From positions 262,703,687-262,767,686 of the forward strand of contig NC_061510.1 in NCBI RefSeq assembly GCF_022539505.1: DNA of 64,000 nucleotides, in the 5' to 3' direction. Numbering within the stretch: the first letter of the stretch is position 1; every line of letters starts with the position of its first letter. This stretch comes from Lolium rigidum (lineage: Eukaryota > Streptophyta > Magnoliopsida > Poales > Poaceae). The translations under genes and the position numbers were made by a program. The notes beneath the pieces are model-generated. The model saw only the letters and a program-made list of their open reading frames with translations, ran no database searches and was not told where the DNA came from. Shown here piece after piece: positions 6,865 to 57,168 of the stretch.

Positions 6865-7426
6865 TGCGGGGTGGCCTTTGGACACCTACGCCTCAAGACC
6901 AACAAGTGCAGCCCCGACTATCATCGACGCTACACCATGGCCAAGGAGTCCCCCAAGTGGACCAACAACACAAACCCCCGCCATATATGTCAAGGTGAAC
7001 TCCTTCCTCTCGACACTCGACCTCGTCAATACCTTGGATGGAATGCTACCTCATGCCGGTGTGTTACATGTCATTAGGTACAAGAGTCATCGAGGAACCG
7101 GAGAGAAGGAACTCCCATGGTGCAAGGAAGAGAGAAGAAGAAGAAGGAAAGAAGAGAAGAAGGAAGAGGAAGAAGAGGCGGGAGGAAGAGGCCCAGCCGG
7201 TCCAGAGGCCGGTCAACCGGGCCCCAGGCCGGCCAGGCCGGTCCCAGGGCTGGTCAGACCGGGCCCCAGACCGGATCCACCCCGGCGACAACCGGGCGTC
7301 GTACCGACGCCAACCCGAGGAACTTTTGCGAACTTCCCGGTTGGCGGCCGGTTGACCGGCCCTGGCACCAGGCCGTCCGGTCCCAGGCCCGGTTGGAACC
7401 CGGTTGACCGGATTTCACGGGACAGA
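6862..7426 (+). repeat. Element A 3' LTR, first part
   Basis: It matches 1011-1575 of the 5' LTR and is cut by element B after ACAGA (7422-7426). It continues at 17045. Confidence 0.92.
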
Positions 7427-7968
7427 TGATGTGGGCACTACCCTTCGGGTAACCCACATTACCCTATCATGTATTGATTAATTGGAGGCCCATGAAGACA
7501 CATAAAGGCGAGATGGGCCACTAGGACGGCGCACCAGAAGGTTCCTTGACGGGCAAGACAAGGAAGCGATCGAACAAGGAAAGATCGGATCTAAAATTAC
7601 TGTAAACTTAGTCGTACTCGGTGAGACCTCTTGAGACCTAGCCTTCTATATAAAGGCCAGGAGAGGGGCTGCCGAGAGACACGATCAATCTTAGCAATCT
7701 TAGCCAGCAAAAGCTTAGAGCTAGGTCACCTTAGCAATAGCCATCTCGACGAGATCTCAGCCGAACTATTCGGCACCCCATTGTAATCCATTATCATCAT
7801 AATCAAGAACAGACAGGCAGGACGTAAGGGTTTTACCTCATCGAGGGCCCCGAACCTGGGTAAATCGCTCTCCCCGCTTGTCTGTGAACCGATGTCTCGT
7901 GTCAGCTTGCAGGATTCCATCAACCCTAAGCCCCTATCGGAGGGCATTGGCGAGGAGTACCCTCGACA
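7427..7968 (+). repeat. Element B 5' LTR
   Basis: A TG...CA LTR of 542 bp. The TATA box TATATAAA is at 7647-7654. The ATG of the first short ORF (7892) lies inside the LTR. Confidence 0.95.
7647..7654 (+). promoter_or_regulatory. TATA box of element B LTR
   Basis: TATATAAA lies within CTTCTATATAAAGGCC, about 310 bp before the LTR end. An identical copy is at 16718-16725 in the 3' LTR. Confidence 0.65.
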
Positions 7969-8353
7969 ATTGGCGCCGTCTCGTGGAAACCCGTCGGCAC
8001 AAGATCGGACATCGGCTGAACCCGTCATGTCATCGGCAGCTTCGTCAACACCATCATCGCCTCGTCTGGGAAGCCCGATTCGTTTCGGCTCCTACGAATT
8101 CACCCCACATAGCGATTCATCTCGCTCGAGTTTCTCCGGTCTACAAGGCAACATGGAGATAGCTTTCGGGAGCGTCCACTACAACGTCAACTCAGAAGGA
8201 ATTCTTCGACTGCTAGAATCTCCCATCTCCAGATTGACGAGTCCGAGCGCGTCGTCATCACTCGACCTTTCGGCTGGCCTGACAAGCCCGTCAAGTCCGT
8301 CCGCGCCTTCGACTCCCCGGTCGACGTCCTCTATGTCGGTCGGATCTCGATGA
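7892..8353 (+). CDS. Element B gag N-terminal segment (starts inside the LTR)
   Basis: ATG 7892 opens a frame of about 153 codons that crosses the LTR end and PBS. The protein is Ser/Pro-rich and likely disordered, with a short motif GSYEFTPHSD and then MEIAFGSVHYNVNSEG, which I recall from the gag N-termini of related wheat elements. The following gag frame (from 8505) is in another phase with no ATG of its own, so the two were probably one gag reading frame now separated by small indels between about 8340 and 8505. It could also be a separate upstream ORF. Confidence 0.5.
   Translation: MSRVSLQDSINPKPLSEGIGEEYPRQLAPSRGNPSAQDRTSAEPVMSSAASSTPSSPRLGSPIRFGSYEFTPHSDSSRSSFSGLQGNMEIAFGSVHYNVNSEGILRLLESPISRLTSPSASSSLDLSAGLTSPSSPSAPSTPRSTSSMSVGSR
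7971..7988 (+). other. Element B primer-binding site
   Basis: TGGCGCCGTCTCGTGGAA begins two bases after the LTR. TGGCGCCGT is the usual start of the primer site in grass gypsy elements of this group. Confidence 0.7.
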
Positions 8354-8504
8354 TCCCGCGACCTCGGAGCTAACCTCGTATTACTGCATGAACTGCGACA
8401 CCAGGCACGGACTGGGGTCAAGCGACACGCCGTTCATCTGCAATGCCTAGTATTCATCGGGAGAGGATAGCATCGGCAGCATCACCCAAGGAGACACCCG
8501 AAGA

Positions 8505-9944
8505 GTGGCGCCCCTCCAAGTTTATGTCGCCAACAGGGGAGACGAAGACCGCACCCCCCGTTCCAGCAGACGAGCTAGTTTTGAAAACAGCGCCAGCAAC
8601 AACAACAGCGACCACACCATTACAGAGGAGGAGTGGGCAGCAGCCAAGGCAGCCGTGCTTAACGATACACCGCTTCCAGCAGGAACCACGGTTGGCACTC
8701 TCAACGCTTACCGCTCCATATTGGAGAAAAATCGTGAGCGCCTATCTAAGGAGCAAGCCACCCTCGAGAAACGCCTATCTGCAGCGGACCGATCCAGCGA
8801 GCGACGCAGAGGCTCGCAGGGAAGTGCCTCCCGAAGTACCCACGGAGGAGGCAAACATCGATCAAGAATGTCCAGGCTTTCGGAAGATGATGCAAGGGAG
8901 ATAACGTCAAACCTGACCAAGTCCTTTATGACTACGGACACCGCGGGCATGCCACGGCCAAAAACCGTTGCGGGAGCAATAGCCAACCTTGCAGCATACC
9001 TCATTAACCAGCGTCCCGAAGGATCCATGGCACAGGCTCACCGTGGTGCCTTAGAAAGTCTCGCGATATTAGGAGATAATCTAGTTCCACGGAAGGAGAA
9101 GACCACCTTGCAGACCAGCGGCCCAAAGCACCGCGCAAGAGATGCTCGAGATGAAATTACTCAGAGTATAATCGACAAAGTAAGGCGACGACGCGCCGCC
9201 AGAGAAGAATTCGATAGCGCTTCTTCGGATGAGACCCAGGAGAACGACGGCGAGCTTAGGGGAGCCGATTGTTTAAGCTACAAAATTCGGGAGGCGATGC
9301 CACCCAAGAAGTTCAAACCCATCCCTACCGACGCCGCCAAGTACGATGGGCAGCAGGAGCCGAGATCCTGGATAGAGGACTATCTACAGACAGTAATTCT
9401 GCAAAAAGGAAACCAGATAGCAGCAATGCAGTGCTTACAGCTTTACCTAAAGGACTCAGCGCGAGCCTGGCTTAGAGGTCTGCCAAAGGGTTCCATTAAG
9501 TCATGGGAAGACCTAGTAGAAGCCTTCGTCGCCAACTTCCAAGCAACCTACAAAAGACCCGTCGGGATCGAGGAATTATGGCATTGTCAGCAAAAGCAGA
9601 AGGAGTCGATGCGTGCATACATCGGGAGATTCAAACTCCTGAACGCTGCGGAAGACGTATCTGTCGACAGAGCGATCGACGCCTTCAGTGATGGCATCCG
9701 ACGTGAAAGCTATATAGAAGAACTTGGGCGCAAGAAGCCGAAAACCATAACCAAATTAATGGAAATCGCCAACAGCTGGGCAGATGGCGAAGACAACGTT
9801 CGAAAGCCACGACAGCGCAGTGACGACGAAGAGGACGACCAGCCGAAGCACGATTCGGGTGGTCGAAGGGATCGCAACAAGAGAAGGAAGAACCGCAGCT
9901 ACGATGACAATAACTTGGTGGCCGCAGGTTATTCTGATCGGTAG
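8505..9944 (+). pseudogene. Element B gag (retrotransposon gag domain)
   Basis: The frame of about 480 codons starts without an ATG (first codon GTG) and so continues an upstream part. An N-terminal charged region is followed by the conserved capsid-like gag domain at about 9300-9800, with SWIEDYLQTVILQKGN, then LYLKDSARAWLRGLP, FVANFQATYKRP and a C-terminal basic, Arg/Asp-rich tail. It packages element RNA into particles. It ends in TAG at 9942; the same frame goes on after it into the protease, with another TAG at about 10032. The polyprotein is thus interrupted by two nonsense codons rather than by a designed gag/pol boundary. Confidence 0.8.
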
Positions 9945-11231
9945 GATGATCGGTACGACGACAGGCGAGACGATCGGCAGGACGGTAATCGGAACAACTC
10001 TGGGAACCGTGGCAACTATAAACCACGACAATAGAGAACTCCCGAACTACCCTACGCTGAGCAGATCAACGCCCCCTGCTACCTGCATTCATATACCGAT
10101 TCCAAGGATGGTAAAATAAAGTCTAGCCACCTGCTCAGGGACTGTCGGCAGTTCATCGACATGCATAAACTCATCCAGCAGGCAGGCCAGCAACAGCTAC
10201 CACCGCCACCACCACCACCCCCACCGCAACATCAGGTCCAGCAATCTCAACCTCACCAACCCAACGAGGCATTTCCACCGCCACGCGGGCAGATGAGTAT
10301 GATTCATAGGACAGGCGTCTCAAGGAGAGAAATGAAGAGGCTCACCCGAGAAATCAACTTGGCAGAAAGCGTTATGGCGAATATCCCTGAGTATGTCGAG
10401 TGGTCGTCTCAGAATATCACGTTCAGCCGAGCGGATCACCCGATGACTATACCAAAACCAGGACATGCCGCCCTAGTGGTCGAAGCACAGATAGGAGGGT
10501 TCAAGATGAGCAAAGTTTTCATGGACGGAGGAAGTGGACTCAACTTGATATTCCTTGACACAATTCAAAGTATGGGGATCACCATGAGAATGCTAGAAGA
10601 ATCAGACACCCGCTTTCATGGGATTCTCCCTACTTCACCAGCGTACTCTCTTGGCAAAGCATACCTGAACGTCGTCTTCGGCAAATCCGACAATTTCAGG
10701 AAGGAGAAGATCGAGTTCGAAGTTGTGAACTGGGAATCACAGTATCACGCCATACTCGGGAGACCAGCTTATGCCAAGTTCATGGCTGTGCCGCACTATG
10801 CATACCTCAAGCTGAAAATGCCTGGGAACAATGGAACGAACATCACAGTCCATGGAAGTTTCTCACGCTCGGACAATTGTGATCGTGATTTTCAAAGGAT
10901 TGCTGCAAAGTTTGGGCCACAGCGAGAAACTGTCGACCTTCCGCCCAAGCTGACGATACGAGAAATCAAGGAGGAAAAACATGACAGAGAAACCAAGAAG
11001 AAGCCAGCCAACACTGCTCTTGAAGCCTCAGCAGCAAAAGCTTCGGCAGCACAAGCTTCGACAGTTGCCGATGCAGAAGATATAGGAGGCAGCAAGGCAC
11101 TGACAATCGCTGCCCAAGCCCCTGGCGAAATCAACAACGCTGCAGCAACCACTAGCATGACGAAGAAATCAGAAGATGTTGTCGAAGATGAGAAGAACCC
11201 CTTCCCCAATAAAGCACTCCCTAGTCTTTAA
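9945..11231 (+). pseudogene. Element B gag tail and aspartic protease
   Basis: It is in the same frame as gag after the TAG. A gag C-terminus with a knuckle-like segment (CYLHSYTDSKDGK ... HLLRDC) precedes ATG 10161. A poly-Pro/Gln stretch follows (10196-10260), then the retroviral-type aspartic protease with its active-site loop MDGGSG (about 10520) and the flap-like ILGRPAYAKF (about 10755). After the protease come Ala/Lys-rich low-complexity residues and a stop at 11229-11231. In complete relatives (see D) reverse transcriptase would follow; here the frame simply ends. The protease from 10161 onward is open and its catalytic Asp is present. Confidence 0.8.
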
Positions 11232-11920
11232 ATTTTTTCCCTTTACTTTACACAGGGCCTCCTTTTTCGCCCTTTAGTTTCGTATTTATCCTATCAATGA
11301 GCACTTAAGTTTCAATTCTTGTTAAGCATTGCAGAAATTTAAAGCATCTATGACCGCGCCACCGTGAACCTTGCTTACAAGTAACGGTACAACGTAACGC
11401 GCGGTAGAAGATTGCGCCCCAAGGGAAAAACTTCCACGAGTGCTGCAAAGAAAAACAAGGACATTAATCCTTCCCTCTGCTTCAGATGCCTCTACGAGTG
11501 CCGCAAAAAGCAAGAGTTTGGAAAACATAAGACAACCCACGTTCGATATTTCACTTATGGAAATATCAAAGAACAACGGGCTCATCGGCAGAACCATTGC
11601 ACCCGAAATATTCGAGAGTGACTGTCGAAACTTACAATCGGTTAAAAGCAAAGTTGCGCATACAACAGGTTTAGCAAAACCTGCAACACGAGCTGATCAC
11701 TCATAATGATTTGCTGACCAACCAGTATACATGCATATAACGGGCAATTAAGATTTTCTCCTTCAAAAATTTGCCAACGGCACGGTAAAAGTACATATTC
11801 ATGTATTTACCAACTAACAAGTTTCGGCTTAACAATCCTAACACTTGGATGGATTAGCCAATGCAATTCATTTTACAAAAATAACTTTACATCCTAACGT
11901 CACCCTTGCGGAGTTTCCCT
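11232..11920 (+). other. Element B spacer where pol is absent
   Basis: No conserved protein is seen on either strand. The sequence is AT-leaning with scattered short ORFs. It marks the boundary between the sense genes and the antisense genes, and no remnant of reverse transcriptase or integrase is recognisable. Confidence 0.6.
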
Positions 11921-12742
11921 TTATTCAGGTACCTTCGAATCCTCCTCAAGCCTGTCGACAATTATGTTGGCAGGCAATAATACCTTCGGGTACAGTTCTT
12001 CAAAATCGCCAGTTGCGTTGGCAATAGATAGCAAACAGGCTGAGGGATAACGAGCAAGCACAAGGGCAAGCGTACACTTGGCCCCCGCAAAAACTTGAGC
12101 TCTCACCAAGTCCCGAATCTTCTTGGCGTTCCCAAATTCGGACATCGAGTTAAAAGCGTAGGGGGAATTGCATTCAAAGGAAACATCGTCTTCCAAACCA
12201 CCCTCATAGCTTTGTAACACTTGTCAAAGAATTGGTGGACTTGTTGGACCCGATCCTGAAATTTCGCAATAGCCGAAGCCTTCGAGTGTTCTCGCCGTGA
12301 AAATCTCTTCGGATGAGGAAAGCTGGGTTAAAGCATGCACTCGCTCGTGTATCCGCTTGTTCTCTTCCGCACGATTCAAAGCTATGACTCGGCAAAAGAA
12401 TCAATAAAGAGTCAGACAAGGCGTTGCTGACAAAAGGGCAAAGGAGTCAGGAAACTTACAGTTCAAACTCTCGGTAGCTTTATGCAGCTCAGTAAGAGTG
12501 TATCGTTCCACGTCGGCTGCAATCTCGCTCTTCATATTGACAATAGCAGCCAAGGCATAAGTGCTGCGCAGGTCCTTCTCCATCTGCGTAATCCGATCCT
12601 TCATACGCTGGATCCGATCACTTTCAAGAAGGGCACCCGAAGAGTCATCAACAAACGAGGGCACTCGGGAAGACTCCGCAGGGAACACCGTTACAAAAGG
12701 ATGATGGATATGGTACAGCTGAGCATCCGAAGTAACTCCCAT
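11921..12742 (-). pseudogene. Element B second antisense gene (frameshifted)
   Basis: The first exon (from ATG 12742) carries a coiled-coil-like segment (RIQRMKDRITQMEKDLRS) and ends ...TESLN at a GTAAGT donor. The second exon starts after ...GTCATAG at about 12383 (ALNRAEENKRIHERV). Two shifts of frame follow (near 12290 and 12150) before the closing segment IRDLVRAQVFAGAKCTLALV and stop at 11921. I recall the same order of motifs in antisense ORFs of other grass Tat elements, so it was a real gene now broken. Function unknown. It lies downstream of, and in line with, the larger antisense gene. Confidence 0.6.
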
Positions 12743-12875
12743 CGGGAGAAGTACAAGAAGAAATATTATAACAAAAGTGTGCTAACAACATTGCTAGCAC
12801 GGAGTTTATTACAATCATAAGTTTTGCGGCAGAACAATGTTTCACATCAGCTCAAGCATAAGTTTGCTACAAGAA

Positions 12876-15492
12876 TCAAGGGGCCTGGGTCTGAGTCGAT
12901 AAACTGGGTCCAGTCGACGACTTCCTTGATGAAACCAGTTCAAGGAGCTGTCGAGCACAAGTAAGGGCAGACGCTTTAAAGGCGCTTAGGTCAGCAAGCT
13001 GCCCGTCTTGCTCTTTCGGCAGCCCCTTAGTCATCTCTTCAATATCACCCTTAAAGTCGTAACCCATCATAAGCTGGAAGGCTAGGACAGCACCATAAGT
13101 GCGCGGTGTACGCTTGAATACCTCGATCACCTCCTTGGTGTCAACCGCGAAGGCATCGATCAGCTGCCCCAGGGTCTTGTCTTGCTTGATCTTGGGAAAG
13201 ATCATCGAGTGCATCCGTGCCAGGGCACCCTTTCCCTTCACAAGAAGCTCCTGCGTAAGCTGGTGAGAGGCAAGAATCATCGACGTAGCGTTTGCCGGGG
13301 AATTGTCTGGAACTCTGTCCGGGGCATCGGCGAGGATGTTCGCCGCTTCGCAGGGGAAAGAAAGAAAAATACATTGGCCAAAGAATCGAATCCATAAGTG
13401 CATCAATCGACAGAGGTGTATAAAATAGTACCTAGCAAGGCCAAAGAAGACTGACGAAGGGCTTCATCCTTTTCGGCTGCCCGAGCTTCAGCCAACAGCC
13501 TGGATGCTTCCTCCTCCTTCAGCTTCTCCTTCAGCCAGCCCAGTTCTTCCTTCAAAGAATCAACTTCTTGGCGAGCCTCAGCAGCTATCTTGACTGCGCC
13601 ATCTAATTTCGAGGAGAAAGACTTGACTTCCTTTTGTAGCCGAGCCTTGTCAACTTCCAGAGAAGTGAATTGGGAGGCAAAGACCTCCAAAGAGGAAATA
13701 ACGCCTCGCAGGTCCTTAAGAAAGAAGGATGTTTTACCAAGAAATTGTTAAGCAAAGCACATTCCAAGAGATTTGCATCACAATTAAAAAAGGACCTACA
13801 GAAGGAGGAGTCGCGGCGGCAGTAGTTGGAGAAGCATCTTTCCCCTTGGAAAGAGAAGAAGCTGTTGATGCTTGAGCCGTAGGGGCTGCCTTAGGAGCCG
13901 AAGCTTCGGAAGCTACTATGACCGGCGGGGCAGCGTCAGATTTGGCTTTCTTAGTCGGAGGCTCGATAAAGCCTTCGTCGCTGCAAAGAGGGATGCCTGA
14001 CAATGGTTACAAAAGGAGTATGAAAAATAAAAGGGCAAATATAACTTCAGAGAAGAAACTGCTTACATGTCGAAGAGATCATCTTCATCGGCAAAGCCGT
14101 CGGTTGATCTCTTCGCAGGTGAAGCCCTGGCCTCCTCCGCAGCTGCATCAACAAAGGTATCACGATCAGCGTTGTCATTACGCATTGATCCATCTGCGTC
14201 ACCAGCGTCATCGGCTGAGGAAGGAAGGTCGAAGTGAGCAACTTCAAAATCTATTGGACCATTATATTTGTCCTCTGGGCCTGTGTGCTCGACAGTGTGA
14301 AAATCTACGGGGATTGAGGATCCTCTCCCCTCAGAAGTATCATCCGGCGAATCATGCATATTCTCAGAAACTATGGGGATCTGTCAAAGAAAATAACAAG
14401 TAAGAACAATGGAAACCATGTCAGCCAAGAAAAAGCAGCAAAATGAGGACATGAAGAAAGAAAAAATACCTTTGATGGTGGATGGTCAGCGTCAAGGGGA
14501 GTGTAAGAAGAAACCAACGGAATCGAATCTTCCTGGGTAAAGGAAGTAAGACGACGGACTTCATCAAGCAACTCCTTTTCCGACAGATCGGCAGCGTTAA
14601 TCCTGGTCTCGTCCTTTGGACCTGAGTACAACCACATCGGGTGAACTCTGGCCATGGCTGGTTGCACTCGACGTTTCAAGAATACCGCTGCCACCTCTGT
14701 GCCGATCATAGTTTGGCCATCGGCCTCTTTGATTCGAAGGAATTTAGTAAATAGTTCTTCGGCTGCTACTCTTTCATCGGGTGAGAGGATATTCTTCCAG
14801 GAATTCTTGGGCTTGGCTTCGGAAACATCGGCAAAGCAAGGAAGCTGAGATTCGGGTGACAGGGAGTCCTTGATGTAAAACCATTTCAGCCTCCACCCTT
14901 GCACGGAATCTCTCATTGGAAAATTGAAGTAATTGACCTCTGAGCGAGCTACAAACCCCACTCCTCCGGTGACAAAGTATCCATTACTGCTGTTGTATCT
15001 CTTCACATAGAAGATCTTTTTCCACAGCCCGAAATGAGGTTCGATACCCAGAAACTCCTCACAAAGGGTGATGAACACAGCAACGTGGAGGATTGAGTTG
15101 GGGGTAAGTTGCCATAGTTGAATTTCGTACGTTCGCAAGAGGTGGAGGAGGAATCCATGGGTAGGAAGCGAAAGGCCTCGGTACAGGAAAGATAAGAACA
15201 TCACGGTAAAGCCAGCAGGGGGATCAGGCTGAGAAATCGCACCTCGAAGGATCACGTTTCCCTCTTCGGAAGAAATCAATCCCAGGCTTCGGGATCTCTT
15301 CTCGTCACGCTTGGTGACGGTTGATGCCACCCAATCTCCGGGCTTGACCTTTGAACTCGACGGCGCTGGCGGCGCTGGAGCTGGGGGAGGAGCACTTGGA
15401 GCGCTCCCCTTCGGAAGAGAATAAGAGGACTTGGCGGCGGCGCCTCCGCTGGTAGAACTGGCAGCGGCGGCAGGATTCTTCTTCTTCACCAT
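12876..15492 (-). CDS. Element B antisense gene with putative 'gypsy type transposon' (Transposase_28-like) domain, 5 exons
   Basis: ATG at 15492. The exons I read are 15492-14470, 14380-14067, 13980-13800, 13714-13432 and 13345-12876; every intron is GT...AG. The total is 2271 nt, divisible by three, with no internal stop (756 codons plus stop). The N-terminus is Lys/Ala/Pro-rich. The core domain lies in exon 1, with FLLHLLRTYEIQLWQLTPNS, LHVAVFITLCEEFLG and DSVQGWRLKWFYIKD; this pattern is the family Pfam calls Transposase_28 (putative gypsy type transposon). Exons 2-3 are acidic and disordered, with an NLS-like PPTKKAKSD. Exon 4 is a heptad-like coiled coil. Exon 5 is helical. No catalytic activity is known for the family. 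It is read opposite to the element transcript, so splicing would only occur on an antisense RNA. Confidence 0.8.
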
Positions 15493-16484
15493 TGTGAGAT
15501 CTGATGAAGATTGGAAAAGCAGTGGTGGCGGCGCAGCAACGGCAAAGGGAGGAAGAAGGAAAAGAATGAGGAGATGGTACGGAAAACGTGGAGAAGATTA
15601 GAGATTTCTCGCCCTTTGGAGATTTTGAGGAAAAGATAAGTGCTATGTAAGCACGTGGCGCTTGAAGAAAGAGTAGAATCGGCGGCCCATTATTCCCACG
15701 TTGTGCAAAAATCGAGGAGGTACCTCGATCGCCACGCGTGCAATGGTCAAGCCCTAAAAACTACCCGCGCAGAGCTAGGGTAGGCCCGTCAGGTCACGTC
15801 CTGTCAATCAGCCCACAGCAATTACACGTCATCAGTGACGTCATTAAAAACAAAACTTGAAGCATTCGAAGGAAAAAAAAGAAAAGCTATCGGATGAAGG
15901 ACTTGAGTCTACGCCCGGCTGTAGACATCTGTACCTAGACTCGGGGGCTACTCCCATCGGGAGCGCTGACGCGCACCCGATAAAATGAAGACTCGATAGA
16001 ATGAGCAGTCGAAGGAAGAAAGTTTGAGTCTGCACTCGGTTGCAAGCGCTCGCAACCAGACACTCGGGGGCTATTACTCCCATCGGGAGCGCGTAATGCA
16101 CACCCGATAGAAGTTTTTTGCACTCCAGGATCATGCCCGGGGACTTGATTCTGTGTAGGGTAACGTTGTTTTTCCATCGGCAGTTAACCAAACAAAAGTT
16201 GGGCATGTTACTCATTATCCTTTGCATAAAGAAAATATATCGGATGACCTATGAAAATCTGTGGAAAACATCGGCAGAGGAAAATATTCGAGTGGTACAA
16301 CTTGAGTCTACGCACGGACTGTGAGCATCCGTACCTAGACTCGGGGGCTACTCCCATCGGGAGCGCTGACGCGCACCCGATAAAATGAAGACAGAGCAGA
16401 TTCAAGATGAACAAGGACAACGAAGGAGAAGAACATCAGGAGAAGACATACTTTAGTCTCTACCCGAACTATCTTCGGCTAGAC
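15493..16484 (+). other. Element B pre-LTR region with repeated PPT-like modules
   Basis: No gene is seen. It contains three modules of an ACTCGGGGGCTAC-like purine tract followed by the hairpin CTCCCATCGGGAG (15939-15963, 16062-16089 with a small insertion, 16339-16363), each followed by GCGCACCCGATAAAATGAAG or a close variant. The promoter of the antisense genes must also lie here or in the 3' LTR. Confidence 0.7.
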
Positions 16485-16497
16485 ACTCGGGGGCTAC
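16485..16497 (+). other. Element B polypurine tract
   Basis: ACTCGGGGGCTAC directly abuts the 3' LTR TGACGTGGG. It is the fourth copy of the motif repeated upstream. Confidence 0.85.
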
Positions 16498-17039
16498 TGA
16501 CGTGGGCACTACCCTTCGGGTAACCCACATTACCCTATCCTGTATTGATTAATTGGAGGCCCATGAAGACACATGAAGGCGAGATGGGCCACTAGGACGG
16601 CGCACCAGAAGGTTCCTTGACGGGCAAGACAAGGAAGCGATCGAACAAGGAAAGATCGGATCTAAAATTACTGTAAACTTAGTCGTACTCGGTGAGACCT
16701 CTTGAGACCTAGCCTTCTATATAAAGGCCAGGAGAGGGGCTACCGAGGGACACGATCAATCTTAGCAATCTTAGCCAGCAAAAGCTTAGAGCTAGGTCAC
16801 CTTAGCAATAGCCATCTCGACGAGATCTCAGCCGAACTATTCGGCACCCCATTGTAATCCATTATCATCATAATCAAGAACAGACAGGCAGGACGTAAGG
16901 GTTTTACCTCATCGAGGGCCCCGAACCTGGGTAAATCGCTCTCCCCGCTTGTCTGTGAACCGATGTCTCGTGTCAGCTTGCAGGATTCCATCAACCCTAA
17001 GCCCCTATCGGAGGGCATTGGCGAGGAGTACCCTCGACA
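16498..17039 (+). repeat. Element B 3' LTR
   Basis: It is 542 bp, the same length as the 5' LTR, with a handful of substitutions seen by eye (for example TGACGTG against TGATGTG). It ends CCTCGACA before ACAGA. Confidence 0.95.
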
Positions 17040-17044
17040 ACAGA

Positions 17045-22477: not shown

Positions 22478-24367
22478 ATGGAAGGGCTACTCCATTGGGA
22501 TTTCTCCCCTGGATTGGCGTTTGCAAATCAGGTTCGTCGTAGGTTTGGTTCCTCAGTCCACTTCATTCCCTCCCCATCTGCAAAGGAATTCTTCTTGGTG
22601 GTCTCTTTCTCCTCGGCCTCTTTTCTTTTGTCCGAGGAATCTGTGGGTGTTGCTCTGCAATGTTGCATTGGTGGTGATCATAATGGATTCAGGGTTTATC
22701 AATTGAGTGATTGTCGCTTTCGTTTCTCTGTGGCCTCGAATAAAGTTGGGCATTTTGTTTATGGCCTTAAAGACCGTATTTGGCCGGATTTTGTCTGCCA
22801 TTTTTCGCTATATAGAGGTGTTCATCCGCAGATCAATGGGTTCGCTTATTGTGAAGTTCCTTATTGGAGTTCTAAAGAGGAGATTCTGGAAGTGGCTCAG
22901 CGTAGCCCTATTCGGTATAGACCATCTTTGAGTGTTCTTGCAGCTAGCGCAGCGAATGATCGTTCAGGTTCTTCAGCCGCAGAATTGTCCAAGTTTGGTT
23001 CGCTTGCTGCGAATTATAATACCACAGGTTTGTTTCATGAGTCGAGTTCCTCTATGCTTGATCATACTGCAGTTAAGTCGCCGGTGAGTTCCTCGACGCC
23101 GGTGATCGCTAAGCCAGCTGAGATTATTTTTGGCAAGTTTTCGACCTCCCTTGAAAAGAGCAGGCCGTTTGAGGCAGGTGCAAAATTTGTGGGATCCGTT
23201 TTTCAAAAGATTTATTTTGATCAGATCTCAGCGGATATTCTCCCGCATATCTTGGACTTAAAGCAGGCAGATTATTCGGATGAGGAGGTGGCTAAGGCAG
23301 TTAACTTGATCATGATCCCGCCTTCCGATTATATTCTCAAACGGTTGAATCTTTGTTCGGCCTGTTCTCTCTTGGGCCACCTGGCGCAAGCTTGCCCGGG
23401 TATCCGTTGCTACGACTGTCATTATCAAGGAACTTCTTGTAAATTGTGTTGTCCCGTGAAGTCAGCTAGACCAACCCAAAAAACAGTCAAGCGATGGGTT
23501 AAAGTTCTCTGTGCTAAATGCAATATCCGTGGTCACTCTGCCAAAAACTGTTCCACACAGAAAATTTGGCGTCCAAAGCTGAAAGAAGCCACATTTTCTG
23601 TTCTCTCTCAGGTGGTTAATAATTCAACTCCCTCCGACATGGTTTTCTCCAACTCTAGCACTTCCATGTCTGACACTATTGTTGGTATGGATATTGGTAT
23701 CTCGGAACCTGAACTTTCTAAAAATGCTTGTGTTGTGGTTAATCCGGAGATAGTCCAAGTGCCTAAGACTTTTTTCTTCGTCCAGCCTGACTATGTTATT
23801 CAGCCAGCTCACGCTCTTGATCTAGTGCTTTTTAATCCTGCAACGGACATCCTTCAGACTGCCAAGAAGCTGGCTCTGACAAAAACGGCACAGTGTTGCT
23901 TTAGCTCTGATCTTTCTGGGAATAATTTTGTGGGTTTCAAAGTTACAGATGCTACATCAGTTCAGCAGCCTTTTGAGGATGCAGGGAGTTCTTCGATACA
24001 TGAAAGGATTGTTGCAGAGAAAGCTCAGTTGGCTCATGCTGCTGATCAAGAGCACATGGTGCCTGAAGCTGATCAAGTTGAGGTTCCAGGTGTCGTTATT
24101 AATAATCTTCCAGCTATGCATGGCCATGAGAACATGACTCCGCTGGTGGTATCTCAAGTTCGGCGGTGTACTCGCAATAATAATGCAGGATACAAGTACA
24201 TGGCGTTGCCGAATCATACTACACGTCGCAAGGTCTCCAAGGTTTCCAAAGCTACTGCTCCTGCCGTTCTGCAGATTGAAGAAATGCAGCGAATTGGCGT
24301 AGAGGAATGTCTCATCGACCCGGCTGAACTTACGGCCGAGCGTCTACAACAGGGTCGCACTGATTAG
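22478..24367 (+). CDS. LINE ORF1 protein (RNA-binding, zinc knuckles)
   Basis: ATG 22478, 629 codons. The N-terminal globular part (about residues 1-150) resembles the plant L1 ORF1 domain of unknown function. A Ser/Ala-rich linker follows. Near residue 293 is a CCHC knuckle CSACSLLGHLAQAC, then a Cys-rich CYDCHYQGTSCKLCC, then a second CCHC knuckle CAKCNIRGHSAKNC near residue 345. The C-terminal third is a variable linker ending in a basic stretch (RRCTRNNN, TTRRKVSKVSK). Plant L1 ORF1 proteins bind the element RNA and form the particle with ORF2. The stop TAG at 24365 is followed after 46 nt by the ORF2 ATG, in a different frame, so ORF2 is probably translated by reinitiation. Confidence 0.9.
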   Translation: MEGLLHWDFSPGLAFANQVRRRFGSSVHFIPSPSAKEFFLVVSFSSASFLLSEESVGVALQCCIGGDHNGFRVYQLSDCRFRFSVASNKVGHFVYGLKDRIWPDFVCHFSLYRGVHPQINGFAYCEVPYWSSKEEILEVAQRSPIRYRPSLSVLAASAANDRSGSSAAELSKFGSLAANYNTTGLFHESSSSMLDHTAVKSPVSSSTPVIAKPAEIIFGKFSTSLEKSRPFEAGAKFVGSVFQKIYFDQISADILPHILDLKQADYSDEEVAKAVNLIMIPPSDYILKRLNLCSACSLLGHLAQACPGIRCYDCHYQGTSCKLCCPVKSARPTQKTVKRWVKVLCAKCNIRGHSAKNCSTQKIWRPKLKEATFSVLSQVVNNSTPSDMVFSNSSTSMSDTIVGMDIGISEPELSKNACVVVNPEIVQVPKTFFFVQPDYVIQPAHALDLVLFNPATDILQTAKKLALTKTAQCCFSSDLSGNNFVGFKVTDATSVQQPFEDAGSSSIHERIVAEKAQLAHAADQEHMVPEADQVEVPGVVINNLPAMHGHENMTPLVVSQVRRCTRNNNAGYKYMALPNHTTRRKVSKVSKATAPAVLQIEEMQRIGVEECLIDPAELTAERLQQGRTD

Positions 24368-24413
24368 TGCCTATTCTTATTCTCAGTTTTAAGTGTCTGT
24401 GCACGTCTGTAAG

Positions 24414-27400
24414 ATGAATCGTAATCGTTCTTGGCACGTTCTGAGTTGGAATATTCGTGGTTTAAATGACCCTGATAAATGGCCGGCTCTCCGCAACAAA
24501 ATTGAAGAAAGCAACGCTTCCATAGTTTGCTTACAAGAAACTAAAAAGATGGATTTTGACCCAAACTTTATTAAGTTGTTTGCTCCTCGCCGTTTTGACA
24601 AGTTTGTCTACATCCCTTCTGATGGAGCATCTGGGGGTTTGCTAGTAATCTGGGTCAGTAACATGTTCGCTGGTCAAGTGGTTCTAGAAGAGAGCTTTGG
24701 TATAGCTGTTACTTTCACTTCCAATATCTCCTCTGATGTTTTCACCCTGGTTAATGTATATGGTCCTTGTGGTGGAATTGAACGTGCTAATTTTGTGGCT
24801 TGGTTGTTTAGTCTGAACATACAAGATGATGATCTTTGGTTACTGCTTGGTGACTTCAACTTTTACCGGTTTGCTGAAAACCGTAACAGAGAGGGTGCAA
24901 ACATGACAGACATTGCAACTTTCAATGAGATCATTAGCTATCTGGGACTAATTGAGCTACCTATCAAGGGCCGCTCTTTTACTTGGAGCAATATGCAATC
25001 AGATCCGCTACTTGTCCAGCTGGATTGGTTTTTTACCTCTCCTTCTTGGACCCTAAAATTTCCCAATACCTTGGTTAATCCACTAGCCCGACCCACATCA
25101 GATCACGTCCCATGTGTTGTTTCTATCGGCACTTCTATTCCTAAAGCTAAGGTCTTCCGTTTTGAGAATCATTGGGTCAGAATGCCGGGTTTTTTGGATG
25201 TGGTAAAAACGATTTGGGAGATTACTTGTCCAGGTGACGCTGCAAAAAGTCTGTCAGCAAAATTGAAGTTATTGCGTAAGGGTCTGAAAAAGTGGAGCAC
25301 TAGCATATCAGTGTTGAATGGTTTGATCAGTAAATGTAATGAAACTATTCTAATGCTAGACAGTTTTGAGGAGCAGAGGGCTCTGCATCTTACAGAGTGG
25401 AATTTTCGAAATATCATCAAAAGTAGGTTGCAGCACTTACTCCTTTGCAAACAAGATTACTGGCGGAAAAGATGTACAGCTAGATGGGCTCAGTTAGGAG
25501 ACGAAAATACATCTTTCTTTCACTCGATGGCAACAATAAGATACAGGAAAAACACCATAGCTTCTCTTGTCAGAGAGGATGGATCTGTAGCTGTAGATCA
25601 TGAGGAAAAGGCTGGCTTATTATGGAACTCCTTCAAGAGCAGATTGGGTGTCTCTGTACCATCATCTTCAAGCTTAGATTTCTCTCAGTATTTTCAGCCA
25701 TTTGCTGGGTTGGAAGAGTTGTCTCTGCCTTTCACCCATGAAGAGATTGACAAAGTGGTAGATCATATGCCAGGAGATAAAGCACCTGGACCGGATGGTT
25801 TCTCTGGTTTGTTTCTCAAGGTGTGCTGGCCGGTGGTGAAATATGACTTTTATCGGCTATGCCAAGAATTTTGGGAGGGGACTGTTAATCTTCAAAGCAT
25901 TAACGATTCTTTTATCACCCTGATCCCCAAAACCATTTCCCCTGAAGGTCCCAATGACTATAGACCAATTTCTTTGTTAAATATTTGTCTAAAGCTGCTC
26001 ACCAAGCTTCTTGCAAATCGGTTACAACACAGAATTCTGGAGCTAGTTCATATCAATCAATATGGGTTTCTACATTCAAGGAACATTCAAGACTGTGTTG
26101 GTTGGGCATATGAATATATACATCAATGCAAACAAGCTGGAGTTGAGACTGTTATTCTCAAACTTGATTTCGCAAAAGCATTTGATACTGTTGAGCATAG
26201 GGCAGTGATGAAGGTGTTTGAATGCTTAGGTTTTGATCCCAGATGGTTGAGATGGCTAGATATGATAATGTCCACGGGTACTTCTTCACTCCTTTTGAAT
26301 GGTGTCCCTGGGAAAAAGTTCAACTGTCGTCGTGGTGTTCGCCAAGGCGATCCGCTATCTCCGTTACTTTTTGTTGGGGTGTCTGAACTACTGCAAGCAT
26401 TGGTCAACAAAATCTTTCAAGAGGGGTTTCTACAGGCACCGTTGGACATTCCAAATTGCGACTTTCCAATTGTGCAATACGCTGACGATACATTGCTCAT
26501 TTTACAAGCCTGCCCAGTCCAATTGGCAGCTCTAAAAAGTTTACTGGAACCTTTTGCACAAGCAACCGGACTACATGTTAATTATTCCAAGTCCTCATTA
26601 ATGCCTGTTAATGTGTCTGAAGATAGACTAAATATGTTGGCTACCAGTTTTGGATGTGCCGTGGGTCGCCTGCCCTTTACTTATTTAGGTTTGCCTTTGG
26701 GAACGACTAAACCCACAATTCAGGACCTTTCTCCATTAGTGGGTCTAGTTGAGAGAAGGTTAAATGCAAGTGCTCGTTTCTTGGGATACGGGGGTCGTCT
26801 TGAGTTTGTCAGATCAGTTCTATCTTCTCTGCCGACTTTTTTCATGTGCTCCCTTAAACTGCAGAAGACCATTATCAATATGGTCAATAGAGCTCAGCGC
26901 CACTGCCTTTGGGCCAAAGAGGAAGACTCTTGTTCAGTTAATGCATTAGCGGCTTGGTCAACTGTGTGCAAACCTAAGAAGTTTGGTGGTCTGGGAGTCC
27001 GCAATTTGGAGTTGCAAAATAAAGCTCTATTACTGAAACAACTCCATAAATTTTATGCAAGAGAAAACATCCCTTGGGTCAAGCTAGTATGGTCTCTTTA
27101 TGGTAATTCGGTGCCACATGCGCAAACTAAACGTGGATCATTTTGGTGGCGGGACATTTTTAGTTTGGTGAATGAATACCGCAGTGTATCTCACTGTAAA
27201 ATAGGAGATGGTACAACGGTTCTCTTTTGGAAAGATTTTTGGCATAACAATGAGGTACTATGTGACAAATTTCCCAGGCTCTATTCATATGCTCTAGATG
27301 AAGATTTATCAGTGGCGGAGCTGGCACACTCAGAGGTTCTTAGCTCGTGTTTTGCCCTCCCCCTCTCGGTTGAAGCATATGAAGAGTTTCAGCAAGTTGA

Positions 27401-28010
27401 GCTTATACTTGCAGCGACACATTTGGTGATAGAGAACCTTGACCAGCGCAGCTTTGTGTGGGGAGTCAAATACTCAGCGTCGAAATATTATAATTTCCTA
27501 TTTGAGCAAATGCCGAAGGATGCAGCTCTTAATGCAATTTGGAAGTCCAGATCGCTCCCAAAGCTGAAGGTTTTCTCATGGCTTCTTATGATCGATAGAT
27601 TAAATACCAGAGACCTTATGCTTCGCAAACAATGGCACTTGGACTCCGGTGCTGATTGTATTCTTTGTCAAGACTCTCTCCTAGAAACACGGGATCATCT
27701 CTTTTTTGGATGTGTTTTTGCCAATCAATGTTGGAACGCTCTAAACATACATTGGAACAGAAGCGTGGCGTTTTCCGACAGCTTTCTTGCTGCAAGATCT
27801 GCCTTTACTGGACCTTGTTTCATGGAGATTATAGCGTGTGCGGCATGGAATATCTGGAAAATCAGAAATGATTTTATTTTTAAAGGGCTGCCGGTATCTT
27901 TTAATAAATGGAAGGTGGGTTTTCAGAGTGACTTGCTACTGCATAGATACAAAGTGAAGGCAGAACTAGTTCAACCTCTTATTGAATGGCTGCTTGCGGT
28001 CTTTGTGTAA
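24414..28010 (+). CDS. LINE ORF2 protein: endonuclease, reverse transcriptase, zf-RVT
   Basis: The ATG at 24414 is the first in the frame (MNRNRSWHVLSWNIRGL), giving 1198 codons. An APE-type endonuclease domain comes first: SWNIRG, QETKK, LLGDFNF and a final SDHVP, all with the expected catalytic Asn, Glu, Asp and His. The reverse transcriptase follows with DKAPGPDGF, the LIPK and NDYRPISLLN blocks, KLDFAKAFD, RGVRQGDPLSPLLF and the active site YADDT near residue 689. Near residue 1045 starts the zf-RVT region (KLKVFSWLLMIDRLNTRD ... CILCQ ... HLFFGC). The protein nicks target DNA and copies the LINE RNA in place. There are no stops or shifts; length is normal for plant L1. Confidence 0.96.
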   Translation: MNRNRSWHVLSWNIRGLNDPDKWPALRNKIEESNASIVCLQETKKMDFDPNFIKLFAPRRFDKFVYIPSDGASGGLLVIWVSNMFAGQVVLEESFGIAVTFTSNISSDVFTLVNVYGPCGGIERANFVAWLFSLNIQDDDLWLLLGDFNFYRFAENRNREGANMTDIATFNEIISYLGLIELPIKGRSFTWSNMQSDPLLVQLDWFFTSPSWTLKFPNTLVNPLARPTSDHVPCVVSIGTSIPKAKVFRFENHWVRMPGFLDVVKTIWEITCPGDAAKSLSAKLKLLRKGLKKWSTSISVLNGLISKCNETILMLDSFEEQRALHLTEWNFRNIIKSRLQHLLLCKQDYWRKRCTARWAQLGDENTSFFHSMATIRYRKNTIASLVREDGSVAVDHEEKAGLLWNSFKSRLGVSVPSSSSLDFSQYFQPFAGLEELSLPFTHEEIDKVVDHMPGDKAPGPDGFSGLFLKVCWPVVKYDFYRLCQEFWEGTVNLQSINDSFITLIPKTISPEGPNDYRPISLLNICLKLLTKLLANRLQHRILELVHINQYGFLHSRNIQDCVGWAYEYIHQCKQAGVETVILKLDFAKAFDTVEHRAVMKVFECLGFDPRWLRWLDMIMSTGTSSLLLNGVPGKKFNCRRGVRQGDPLSPLLFVGVSELLQALVNKIFQEGFLQAPLDIPNCDFPIVQYADDTLLILQACPVQLAALKSLLEPFAQATGLHVNYSKSSLMPVNVSEDRLNMLATSFGCAVGRLPFTYLGLPLGTTKPTIQDLSPLVGLVERRLNASARFLGYGGRLEFVRSVLSSLPTFFMCSLKLQKTIINMVNRAQRHCLWAKEEDSCSVNALAAWSTVCKPKKFGGLGVRNLELQNKALLLKQLHKFYARENIPWVKLVWSLYGNSVPHAQTKRGSFWWRDIFSLVNEYRSVSHCKIGDGTTVLFWKDFWHNNEVLCDKFPRLYSYALDEDLSVAELAHSEVLSSCFALPLSVEAYEEFQQVELILAATHLVIENLDQRSFVWGVKYSASKYYNFLFEQMPKDAALNAIWKSRSLPKLKVFSWLLMIDRLNTRDLMLRKQWHLDSGADCILCQDSLLETRDHLFFGCVFANQCWNALNIHWNRSVAFSDSFLAARSAFTGPCFMEIIACAAWNIWKIRNDFIFKGLPVSFNKWKVGFQSDLLLHRYKVKAELVQPLIEWLLAVFV

Positions 28011-44600: not shown

Positions 44601-44784
44601 GAGCCCGAAAGCACCACCCACGCGGCAAAGGAGGCAAGGGCAAGAACAAGGAAAAGTACGAGGACAGTTCTGAGGCGATGGACGAGGATGACGCTTCGCC
44701 GGAGGAGCGTTCCGCAGCCAACAAATCGAATCCCTTCGTCAAAAAGAGTGCTGGTGCATACCACACCTTCCTTGGAACCCCGAC
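41670..44784 (+). pseudogene. Element E gag (interrupted by D)
   Basis: The likely start is ATG 41670 (MGSYDESIAVGRVLYAG), which aligns with D's first conserved Met; ATG 41625 is an in-frame alternative. A long acidic N-terminal half with coiled-coil-like parts (DPKALEATRKEMLSTAK) leads to TAA at 42843 and TAG at 43203. The frame then shifts into a Ser/Arg- and Gly-rich linker, a TAG at 43772 where D has a Trp codon, and the capsid-like gag domain (about 43780-44230; LYLVGLARTWLGDLP, FEKHFRGTYKRP). An RGG-type basic stretch near 44380 and a Cys/His segment (CLAHMDPATDKSSHTNRSC) bind RNA. D cuts the frame at 44785; the remainder follows at 57733. Several stops make it non-functional. Confidence 0.75.
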
Positions 44785-45346
44785 TGTTGTGGGTATACTT
44801 CATAGGTGTACCATCGACAGTGCCTAGATCCGGCAAGCCCGGGTGGCCCACAGACAGTGATGAGGCATGTGGCCCATCGGGCGGCCCGATTGCTTGTTGA
44901 TCATGAAGGAAGAAGTCCAGCCCGGGATCGGCGGGCCGGATCCGTACCGACATAGGAGTAACCCGGATCCATGGAGGCCCATGAGGAACTCGGATCCAGG
45001 ACGACGTGTATGGAAGGCGGATCCGTGACGTGCACGGCAAGATATTGTACCGTAGTTAGGCTATCTGTAATCCGGCTAGGACTCTCCATGTAAACCCTAG
45101 ATCCGTGCGCCTTTATAAGCCGGATCCCGGGAGCCCTAGAGGCACAACCACAACTCATTGTAACAACGCGAAAGCGCCCCGGATAATTCCGGACAAGCAG
45201 CGAGTAGGCCCTCGTCATCGTGCGGGTGTTCCGAAGCCGGGTAACTCGCGTACCACCGTCCCGTGTGCACTCCGCCCTATGGCCCCTACTTCTTCTCCCC
45301 CTCGTGAGGATCCCTCCTCCGAGGTACCGTCGATTAGGCAACGGCG
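44785..45346 (+). repeat. Element D 5' LTR
   Basis: It starts TGTTGTGGGTATACTTCATA and ends in AACGGCG where the 3' copy has AACGACA. It contains many GGATCCG repeats and TTTATAAG (45112) as core promoter. Confidence 0.92.
45112..45119 (+). promoter_or_regulatory. TATA-like box of element D LTR
   Basis: TTTATAAG lies in GCGCCTTTATAAGCCGG. The same box is at 57496 in the 3' LTR and near 17670 in E. Confidence 0.5.
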
Positions 45347-45348
45347 GT

Positions 45349-45366
45349 TGGCGCCCACCGTGGGGC
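45349..45366 (+). other. Element D primer-binding site
   Basis: TGGCGCCCACCGTGGGGC lies two bases after the LTR. In E the matching site was destroyed by element F and the later deletion (GTTGG at 17901 and CCCACCATGGGG at 41619). Confidence 0.7.
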
Positions 45367-45403
45367 TCGCGGCGTACGGAGGCCGGAACCGGGAGGGTTC
45401 CGC

Positions 45404-48400: not shown

Positions 48401-48560
48401 GACAAGGAGGAGGACAGTTCCGAGGCGATGGACGAGGATGATAACTCGCCGGATCCCAAAGCCGGATCCGCAGGTAAATCCAACCCCTTCGAGAAAAAGA
48501 GCGTGGGGGCTTACCACACCTTCCTCGGAACCCCAACAGTCCGCGCTACAAAATCAGCTA
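45404..48560 (+). pseudogene. Element D gag (multiply frameshifted)
   Basis: ATG 45404 (MGSYDDTIAVGRVLYAG). The reading passes through at least four phases (45404-45665, 45834-46481, 46478-47443, 47440-47886, then about 47880-48560), and only short overlaps or gaps separate them. The order matches E: acidic N-terminal half, Arg/Gly/Ser-rich linker (about 46920-47400), capsid-like domain at 47500-47980 (LYLVGPARIRLGDLE, FEKHFEGTYKRP), RGG-like tract GGGRGRGRGGGAG (48130) and the Cys/His segment CLAHLDPATGKSTHTNRNC (48247). It forms the particle and binds RNA in working relatives. Most lesions are single-base, and some may be assembly errors. Confidence 0.8.
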
Positions 48561-48596
48561 CCCGGATCCTGAACGCCACGGTTCCGGCTGTGCCGC

Positions 48597-49320
48597 ATGT
48601 ATGTCGGGTGGTCGGAAGTTCCGTGCACATTTGACGGGGAGGATCATCTCGCCATTGTGCCAAAAGAATACTACGCCTTGGTTGTGAGTCCTCGCATAGA
48701 CGGGTATGACTTCTCCAAGTGCCTCATGGATGGCGGAGCCAGCTTGAACATCATGTACCTGGAGACTTTGGAGCGGATGAACCTCACCAAGGAACATCTC
48801 AAACACAGCACCACTGAGTTTCACGGCGTGGTTCCGGGTAAGAAGGCGAACTCCCTCGGCGGCATCACACTTCCCGTGGCTTTCGGCGATGTTCATAATT
48901 TCCGCGAAGAGAAGATCACGTTCGAAGTTGTGCCCTTCAAGAGCTCCTACCATGTCATCTTCGGCAGGCCCACCTACCACAAGTTCCACGCAAGAGCGTG
49001 CTATATCTACAACAAGCTCAAGATGCCGGGTCCCAATGGTATGATCACCATAACCGGAGACTACAAGAAGGCTCATGAGTGCGAGTTGGGCGAAGCCGCC
49101 TTCGCGAGTACTGTCATATCCGGAGAAGAGCTGAAAGGCTACGGGGCCGCGGTGGATCCGGCCGAGATGCAAACCACCAAGAAGCGAGATCTCCGAACGA
49201 GAAAAACTCCTTCGGGGCCGCGATTGAGACCAAGAAAGTCAGCTTCAAGGAAGATGACCCTAGCAAGCAAGTCTCGATCGGAGCCAACATGGACCCCAAA
49301 TAGGAAAGCGCGCTCGTCGA
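48597..49320 (+). pseudogene. Element D aspartic protease
   Basis: It overlaps the end of gag in another frame. YALVVSPRIDGYDFSKCLMD leads into the active site MDGGAS (about 48730), and HVIFGRPTYHKFHARACYIY is the C-terminal half (about 48954). The frame goes on to 49382, although after about 49190 its reading departs from E's (a one-base shift near the QTTKK block). It processes the gag-pol polyprotein. The catalytic Asp is present. Confidence 0.8.
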
Positions 49321-51150: not shown

Positions 51151-51177
51151 TACCTAGAGCATCTCCGGATACCCTCG

Positions 51178-52591: not shown

Positions 52592-53134
52592 TCAATGAAA
52601 TAAAGCTTATGGTTCACTCTTTGAGTCTTTTACCTCCTTTACTTGTTCATTTTAGATCGTGTATGTTTTTTCCGACTAAAACCGCAGAGCTGGATGTTTT
52701 CCGCCTAGGCGTGTATAAAAGTTGTGATTTCTAAAATCGTCCTTTAGGACGTAAGTTTAAGTTTTCAGATTAAGTTGTTATCTGTTGCGAACTCGTGGAT
52801 TCCTAGTAGCGATTTCCGGCACCTATGCTTGGGGGCTTGTTTCCGCGGTTATGGACGGATTGCCATTGGGCTTCGTCGCCGCTGGCGAGCATCTCCGGCT
52901 AAGGTTTTCCGGCTCGTGGAAGGTCAAGCGGGCAAGCCGGAAAATAACGAGATCAGCACTTGCTTTCCGACATAAAACGAAACATGCACATAACATTAAA
53001 CGGATAGCAGGATAAGTGTTTCCGCCCCATGCATAATCGTTTCGTTCCTAGCTACTTAAGAATTTAAAGTCTTATTACAAACCCTCGCTGGGGCCAAAAT
53101 GATGCAACTTGTTTCATTGTTTCAAACAGGAACT
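52592..53134 (+). other. Element D spacer between pol and the antisense gene
   Basis: AT-rich, with no conserved frame. A PPT-like GCTTGGGGGCTTG is at about 52827. It probably holds the ends of both convergent transcripts. Confidence 0.6.
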
Positions 53135-57156: not shown

Positions 57157-57168
57157 TCTGGGGGCTAC
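57157..57168 (+). other. Element D polypurine tract
   Basis: CTCTGGGGGCTAC ends at the base before the LTR TGTTGTGGG. The same GGGGGCTAC core is used by B and F. Confidence 0.85.

What the first reader, a model, noticed from the sequence alone, without database searches (positions are those of the whole stretch)
7427..17039. A polymerase-less retrotransposon keeps a fully open, spliced antisense gene
Element B has lost reverse transcriptase, RNase H and integrase and has two nonsense codons in its sense gag frame. Its minus-strand gene (15492-12876) nevertheless joins through five exons and four GT-AG introns into 757 codons without a stop, and all exon phases fit. The LTRs differ at few sites, so B moved recently. 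This suggests that the antisense protein, and not pol, is what the element (or its partner) needs. In a genomic sense RNA these introns read CT...AC and would not be removed, which would let them survive retrotransposition.
Basis: partly seen in the sequence, partly recalled or inferred. Interest (0 to 1): 0.8.

Follow-up and report, generated by a model that had tools for sequence, protein, structure and literature searches.

The report
Split ryegrass retrotransposon, conserved antisense gene
A jumping element in a ryegrass-like genome carries, on its opposite strand, a five-exon protein gene of a kind already known from its lineage; selection keeps the gene's protein across copies, and the element seems to be the capsid-making half of a two-part system whose other half makes the polymerase and keeps its own version of the same gene.

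Summary
Element B (7427-17039) is a complete insertion: 5-bp target duplication, 542-bp LTRs with 5 differences, no RT, RNase H or integrase found. Its minus-strand gene (15492-12876) has five exons and four GT-AG introns (756 aa plus stop). It encodes Transposase_28 (PF04195), the known antisense gene of Retand Ty3/gypsy elements, so the gene itself is not new. New here: (1) the protein is under purifying selection across 21 copies (private changes N/S 282/158 with 16 new stops; shared changes 89/133; P=5e-9), and 108 of 108 donor sites are GT in 27 copies; (2) gag is constrained at least as strongly and B's two gag stops are private to B, so 'the antisense protein rather than gag' is not supported; (3) a reciprocal partner exists: RT-bearing elements that lack gag (5 of 5 copies read). 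Their LTRs are 82-89% identical to B's while protease DNA is only 68-71% identical, although LTR and protease diverge in step within each type. The one partner antisense gene read has the same four introns. B is best read as the gag-supplying half of a Cinful/Zeon-like split pair, each half keeping its own antisense gene. Transcription, splicing and trans-mobilisation remain inferred. New variant of a known kind.

The parts
7422..7426 (.). target site duplication ACAGA, left copy
7427..7968 (+). 5' LTR (TG...CA), 542 bp, 5 substitutions from the 3' LTR
7970..7990 (+). presumed primer-binding region beginning TTGGCGCCGTCT; these 12 bases also follow the LTR in the gag-less partner copies L038, L040, L041
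8508..9941 (+). gag open frame with Retrotrans_gag PF03732 (E=4.7e-15)
   Evidence: constrained across copies
9942..11231 (+). continuation of the gag frame through the protease region; nonsense codons at 9942 and 10032 are private to B
11924..12688 (-). downstream antisense coding exons, joined to the antisense gene in several Lolium multiflorum gene models; constrained in the family; interrupted by indels in B
12805..12810 (-). AATAAA, possible polyadenylation signal 66 nt after the antisense stop codon
   Evidence: read
12876..13345 (-). antisense gene exon 5 (stop codon at 12876-12878)
13432..13714 (-). antisense gene exon 4 (aligned with the predicted coiled coil of relative P0003)
13800..13980 (-). 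antisense gene exon 3 (contains a basic KKAK motif, noted by eye)
14067..14380 (-). antisense gene exon 2
14470..15492 (-). antisense gene exon 1 with start codon and Transposase_28 domain (PF04195)
15493..16497 (-). region between antisense start codon and 3' LTR; presumed antisense promoter; two stretches 76-78% identical to the gag-less partner copy
16498..17039 (+). 3' LTR
17040..17044 (.). target site duplication ACAGA, right copy

Best explanation
B belongs to a many-copy non-autonomous Retand-type Ty3/gypsy family that supplies Gag (and a protease region) but no polymerase or integrase. Its pol is most likely supplied by a second many-copy family that has protease and RT but no capsid gene, and whose LTRs resemble B's. 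The two RNAs would share particles; Gag comes from B-type elements and Pol from the partner. Each type also keeps its own antisense gene next to the 3' LTR, transcribed from its own promoter, spliced through four short introns, and translated into a roughly 750-aa protein with a Transposase_28 domain and a coiled coil, probably nuclear. Because Gag and Pol could each be lost by one partner while both kept the antisense gene, that protein probably acts preferentially on the element (or locus) that encodes it. Shown: structure, many copies, frame-dependent purifying selection, intron conservation, absence of gag in five partner copies, LTR similarity beyond that of protease DNA. Inferred: transcription, splicing, co-packaging, nuclear location, cis-preference, and integrase in the partner.
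For: Selection: 21 copies, antisense frame, private N=282 S=158 (16 stop gains), shared N=89 S=133 (1 stop gain), shared in 4 or more copies N=40 S=72, fixed between subfamilies N=14 S=32. Two other antisense frames and two of three sense frames show no excess of shared silent changes; the third sense frame, whose third positions coincide, does. Private variant density is similar in exons and introns (0.194, 0.205 per site), shared density is lower in exons (0.098 against 0.130; with the second subfamily 0.281 against 0.546). Shared indels: 21 types in 346 intron bases, none a multiple of three; 5 types in 2271 exon bases. Donors 108 of 108 GT; acceptors 104 of 107 AG. Four GT-AG introns at the same places in the partner copy's gene. 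Gag in 13 copies: private 114/79, shared 29/83. Gag-less partner: 5 of 5 copies, 741-789 nt from LTR end to protease domain against about 2280 in B; 0 of 91 listed RT matches have any of 150 listed gag matches within 8 kb upstream. LTR: partner against B 81.7-88.7% while protease is 68.0-70.9%; among partner copies LTR and protease identity agree within 2 points in 10 of 10 pairs, and B against L029 gives 88.0 and 87.2.
Against: No RNA data. The tree tests do not show that LTRs moved between types: holding three partner LTRs together is not rejected (p-AU 0.217), and neither is L041 with the B-type copies in protease (p-AU 0.307); the case rests on the LTR-protease mismatch, which strong constraint on LTR cis-signals could also produce. 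Exons 2 and 3 alone show no significant constraint (P=0.36, 0.11), and the coinciding sense frame gives a shift nearly as strong as the gene's (odds ratio 2.34 against 2.67). Private indels are also denser in introns (24 in 346 bases against 54 in 2271). Most copies are dead: 23 of 26 copies other than B have a stop before the end of the joined frame (L022, L026 and L033 do not; some loci are cut short). Only one partner copy was read at its 3' end, and it has a frameshift in exon 1 and a run of N near exon 2; the partner's integrase was not read. Both lists are small best-scoring subsets of 35,665 and 52,673 first-look candidates, so a gag-plus-pol family could be missed.
Confidence: 0.62

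Rival explanations
1. B is an ordinary non-autonomous passenger mobilised by any related autonomous Retand element; the antisense gene works in trans for the whole lineage and B merely supplies another source of it.
For: Antisense Transposase_28 ORFs are reported in 97% of recently active Retand clusters (abstract and section 11 part 1 of PMC11963269); the window holds further pieces of related antisense genes.
Against: Gag and the antisense frame are both under selection within the pol-less family, and the one copy read of a second subfamily, 18% diverged, has the same pol-less layout, so this looks like an old, self-sustaining lineage and not a recent deletion product.
Confidence: 0.2
2. The antisense transcript, not the protein, is what matters (double-stranded RNA or promoter interference that tunes silencing).
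For: Raised for antisense ORFs of such elements in PMC7264820 (passages); would also keep a promoter in the 3' region.
Against: Frame-dependent constraint, near-absence of shared frame-shifting indels in exons next to freely shifting introns, and conserved splice sites are not needed for an RNA function.
Confidence: 0.08
3. LTR similarity between B-type and gag-less elements reflects strong constraint on shared cis-signals rather than exchange by template switching.
For: p-AU 0.217 for a single partner LTR clade, three partner copies; both types need promoter, primer site and integrase ends.
Against: Within each type the LTR diverges about as fast as protease DNA (10 of 10 partner pairs and B against L029), so the LTR is not slow-evolving as a whole.
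Confidence: 0.3
4. The antisense gene is a captured host gene, retained by chance in young copies.
For: It has introns, as a captured gene would.
Against: Constraint across copies; PMC11963269 (discussion) reports no similarity to TRP28 outside transposable elements. One search gives protein names only, no genomic context.
Confidence: 0.03

Closest known systems
Antisense Transposase_28 (PF04195) gene of Retand-lineage elements (maize Grande gene23, rice RIRE2, Silene Retand as cited in PMC11963269 and PMC7264820; also PMC6317226)
   Same: Position next to the 3' LTR, antisense orientation, PF04195 domain at E=1.2e-22.
   Different: Here the gene is resolved into five exons whose four introns recur in a partner type, and selection on the protein is measured. 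The 2025 survey used ORF Finder and its main text has no word beginning 'intron'.
Cinful/Zeon split retrotransposon pair of maize (PMC8547701, passages and section 19 part 1)
   Same: One element type codes for gag, the other for pol; LTR signals said to be homogenised. Cinful-1 RT is one of the Retand queries in PMC11963269.
   Different: Ryegrass-like genome; both halves carry an antisense gene with introns; LTR-protease mismatch calibrated within types. Whether Zeon or Cinful has such a spliced gene was not checked.
Alopecurus myosuroides Retand clusters 2 and 3b (Table 1: gag and protease, no RNase H or integrase, LTR 564-577, internal 8734) and 7a, 7b, 7c, 7i, 7j (no gag, pol domains present) in PMC11963269
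   Same: Two complementary defect classes in one grass, both with the antisense domain; sizes near those of B.
   Different: That survey was anchored on an uninterrupted RT, so clusters 2 and 3b must contain RT, whereas B has none; RT-less elements such as B cannot appear in it. The parts that I read do not pair the two classes.
Ogre elements with a partially spliced intron between protease and RT (passage in PMC6317226)
   Same: The gag-less partner has a GTAAGA...TAG stretch at that point, absent from a Lolium gene model.
   Different: Different lineage; here only inferred from sequence.

Membership tests
Retand lineage (Ty3/gypsy, non-chromovirus) | RT phylogeny | not tested
   B has no RT; partner RT was not placed on a tree here
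Retand lineage (Ty3/gypsy, non-chromovirus) | antisense ORF with PF04195 between coding region and 3' LTR | tested here: met
   E=1.2e-22, 80.4 bits against a cut-off of 26.2
Retand lineage (Ty3/gypsy, non-chromovirus) | Retrotrans_gag domain and long 3' internal region | tested here: met
   about 5.3 kb between the gag-protease frame and the 3' LTR
Split gag/pol pair (Cinful/Zeon kind) | gag-only copies as a replicating family | tested here: met
   B and 12 of 20 fetched copies have gag, protease region, mid region and antisense gene, none of the 20 matches RT or INT; second-subfamily copy L029
Split gag/pol pair (Cinful/Zeon kind) | pol-only copies with related LTRs | tested here: met
   5 of 5 copies chosen by RT match lack gag; LTR 81.7-88.7% to B; integrase not read
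Split gag/pol pair (Cinful/Zeon kind) | copies with both gag and pol very rare | tested here: inconclusive
   0 of 91 RT matches with a listed gag upstream, but both lists are subsets; of 7 wider gag-antisense pairs, 1 was read and is B-type after the protease
Split gag/pol pair (Cinful/Zeon kind) | mutual trans-mobilisation | not testable with these tools
   needs particle RNA or activity data

The most novel reading that the evidence does not exclude
In a split retrotransposon, Gag and Pol are shared goods that each half could drop, but the antisense Transposase_28 protein is kept by both halves in diverged form, so it is a cis-preferring, element-specific factor (for example one that marks the element's own DNA or RNA), and the antisense orientation is what lets an intron-bearing accessory gene survive passage through RNA.
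Probability: 0.25. Interest if true: 0.72.

Novelty: new variant of a known kind. Interest (0 to 1): 0.5.

Why it matters
The function of the Retand antisense protein is still described as unknown (PMC7264820, PMC11963269). Evidence that selection keeps it, that it has four conserved introns, and that both halves of a split pair carry it makes cis-preference directly testable. It may also explain why an ORF-based survey sees several antisense ORFs per element, and it shows why RT-anchored surveys miss the gag half of such systems.

Tried and rejected
Structure: an AlphaFold2 model of a Lolium relative of similar length (P0003, 42-row alignment) was poor (mean pLDDT 48.2, pTM 0.30), with the coiled-coil helix 512-606 the main confident part; the PDB fold search gave one match at E=2.6. 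No fold-based function is claimed.

Partner search: P0194, P0195, P0155 and P0157 first looked like the autonomous partner but look like gene models fused across nested elements. The window's own element at 44783-57724 is not the partner: B's LTR has no match there.

LTR exchange as a tree topology: suggested by raw identities and by the drawn LTR tree, in which L041 falls on the B-type side, but the AU test did not reject the alternative, so it is not claimed as shown.

Seven gag-antisense pairs at 11.6-19.1 kb could have been gag-plus-pol elements; the one that I could read was B-type after the protease.

Literature: among the papers listed in searches I saw none that, by title or start of abstract, describes introns in the Transposase_28 antisense gene or a ryegrass split pair; the word 'intron' does not occur in the main text of PMC11963269 or PMC7264820. 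Passages only were seen of PMC2774510, PMC7765848 and PMC11728184. The library is open-licence only; the original Grande, RIRE2, Retand and Cinful papers were not seen, so a description there cannot be excluded.
Full report
What was checked. Element B is a clean insertion in an LTR of an outer element, with a 5-bp duplication (ACAGA), 542-bp LTRs differing at 5 sites (K2P 0.0093), and no RT, RNase H or integrase found. The minus-strand gene joins through five exons with GT-AG introns of 85-89 nt into 756 codons plus a stop. The first exon holds Transposase_28 (PF04195, E=1.2e-22).

Copies. A DNA search with the antisense gene listed 41 matches, 40 of 3113 first-look candidates being scored. 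The 20 best after B were fetched at about 9.9 kb each; 12 of 20 keep gag, protease region, mid region and antisense gene in B's order, the other 8 lack some of these within the stretch. None of the 20 matches RT or integrase of the window's own Retand-like element. A protein search with exon 1 listed 118 copies at 87-100% identity, 84 of them without a stop in the match (my count by eye; the list is of best matches, so biased to intact ones). One copy read from a second subfamily, 82% identical in DNA, has the same pol-less layout.

Is the antisense frame selected? Variants carried by one copy arose mostly after insertion; variants shared by several copies arose mostly while the element was still replicating. 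In 21 copies the antisense frame has private N/S 282/158, with 16 new stops, and shared N/S 89/133 with one (P=5e-9); shared by four or more 40/72; fixed between these and 6 second-subfamily copies 14/32. Each variant counts once however many copies carry it. The same test in the two other antisense frames and in two sense frames shows no such shift; the third sense frame, whose third positions coincide with those of the gene, shows one nearly as strong (odds ratio 2.34 against 2.67), as that coincidence predicts. By exon, 1, 4 and 5 are significant on their own, 2 and 3 are not. Private density is similar in exons and introns; shared density is lower in exons. Introns carry 21 shared indel types in 346 bases, none a multiple of three; exons carry 5 in 2271 bases, one of six bases and four of one base, each of the four in two copies; private indels are also denser in introns (24 in 346 bases against 54 in 2271; indels over 40 bases left out). 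Individual copies are decayed: 23 of 26 copies other than B have a stop before the end of the joined frame, as expected of dead insertions.

Splice sites. In 27 copies all 108 donors are GT; of 107 scorable acceptors 104 are AG, counting the intron-4 AG three bases upstream that 20 of 27 copies have and B does not; the three exceptions are each in one copy. In the antisense gene of the one gag-less partner copy read at its 3' end, 53% identical in most of exon 1 and 41% in a C-terminal stretch, GT-AG introns lie at the same four places. Ten gene models from Lolium and Festuca were laid on the window and follow these exons, with some exons missing or unaligned in several. Several models run past B's stop into downstream antisense exons (12688-11924), which are themselves constrained in 16 family copies (private 54/46, shared 14/38, P=0.002); nearly the same short indel pattern relative to B recurs in the other 16 copies aligned, so the breaks there look particular to B (types compared, positions not). 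Whether this stretch is an alternative 3' end or a second gene is open.

Gag. In 13 copies (B among them) gag has private 114/79 and shared 29/83, the protease region private 118/70 and shared 76/81; the antisense frame in the same 13 copies has 193/148 and 60/99. Gag is thus at least as constrained. B's two nonsense codons occur in none of the other 13 gag copies aligned.

The partner. A search with B's gag-protease frame (residues 220-880) found 115 proteins. Of these, 35 match RT; in 14 of the 35 (12 named Lolium multiflorum, 2 unnamed) a B-like leader, protease and RT follow in that order with no capsid match; only a rice and a Tanacetum protein match gag, protease and RT in order. RT from one Lolium protein listed 91 full matches in the window's genome. 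Five of these copies were read at the 5' end: all have LTR, leader and protease, none has a gag match, and the LTR-to-protease distance is 741-789 nt against about 2280 in B. RT itself was seen in L038; integrase was not read. Of the 91 RT and 150 best gag matches no pair lies in gag-pol order within 8 kb, while 14 pairs of the 118 antisense and 150 gag matches lie 5.15-5.67 kb apart, B's spacing, and 7 more 11.6-19.1 kb apart.

Shared ends. LTR identity between the five partner copies and B is 81.7-88.7%, protease identity 68.0-70.9%. In 10 of 10 pairs of partner copies LTR and protease identity agree within 2 points, and B against L029 gives 88.0 and 87.2 (there over a longer protease stretch). 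LTRs of the two types are therefore more alike than their coding DNA predicts. Exchange by template switching in shared particles would do this; homogenisation of LTR signals was proposed for maize split families (PMC8547701, section 19 part 1). Tree tests do not by themselves show exchange (p-AU 0.217 for LTRs, 0.307 for protease, three partner copies).

Reading. B is the gag half of a split Retand system of the Cinful/Zeon kind. The antisense gene is the lineage's known accessory gene (PMC11963269: abstract, section 4, section 11 part 1 and section 12 read; PMC7264820 and PMC6317226: passages), here shown to have a conserved intron structure and to be under selection. Since each half lacks one shared protein but the antisense gene is present in both in diverged form, I infer an element-specific role; this last step rests on one partner gene and gene models. 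Nuclear location rests on the report for Grande cited in PMC7264820 and on a basic motif in exon 3 noted by eye.

Limits. 

Noticed in passing
L038:4330-4437, L041 near its 3' end; one search list: In the gag-less partner, a stretch beginning GTAAGA and ending in an in-frame TAG separates protease from RT; 90 of 91 listed RT matches contain at least one TAG. The Lolium protein P0211 lacks the stretch, as if spliced, recalling the Ogre intron at the same place; it could also be a read-through stop.
   Followed up: partly
window 44783-57724: A full-length Retand-like element (LTRs 44783-45343 and 57167-57724, 98.6% identical) with a gag-like match at 47359-47880, RT, RNase H and integrase domains, and a distant antisense match to B's protein at 56026-55634.
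   Followed up: partly
window 39755-39159 and 32056-31844: Further pieces 36-40% identical to B's antisense protein, probably from another, interrupted element.
   Followed up: no
window 22478-28010: Two adjacent long open frames (629 and 1205 aa); the second has endonuclease, RT and zf-RVT domains, i.e. a LINE-like element with open frames.
   Followed up: no
window 12688-11924: Second stretch of antisense coding exons downstream of B's stop; several Lolium models splice it onto the antisense gene, and an AATAAA lies between, suggesting two alternative 3' ends.
   Followed up: partly
window 60282-62592: Region of mutually similar diverged repeats (about 65-81% identical to each other).
   Followed up: no
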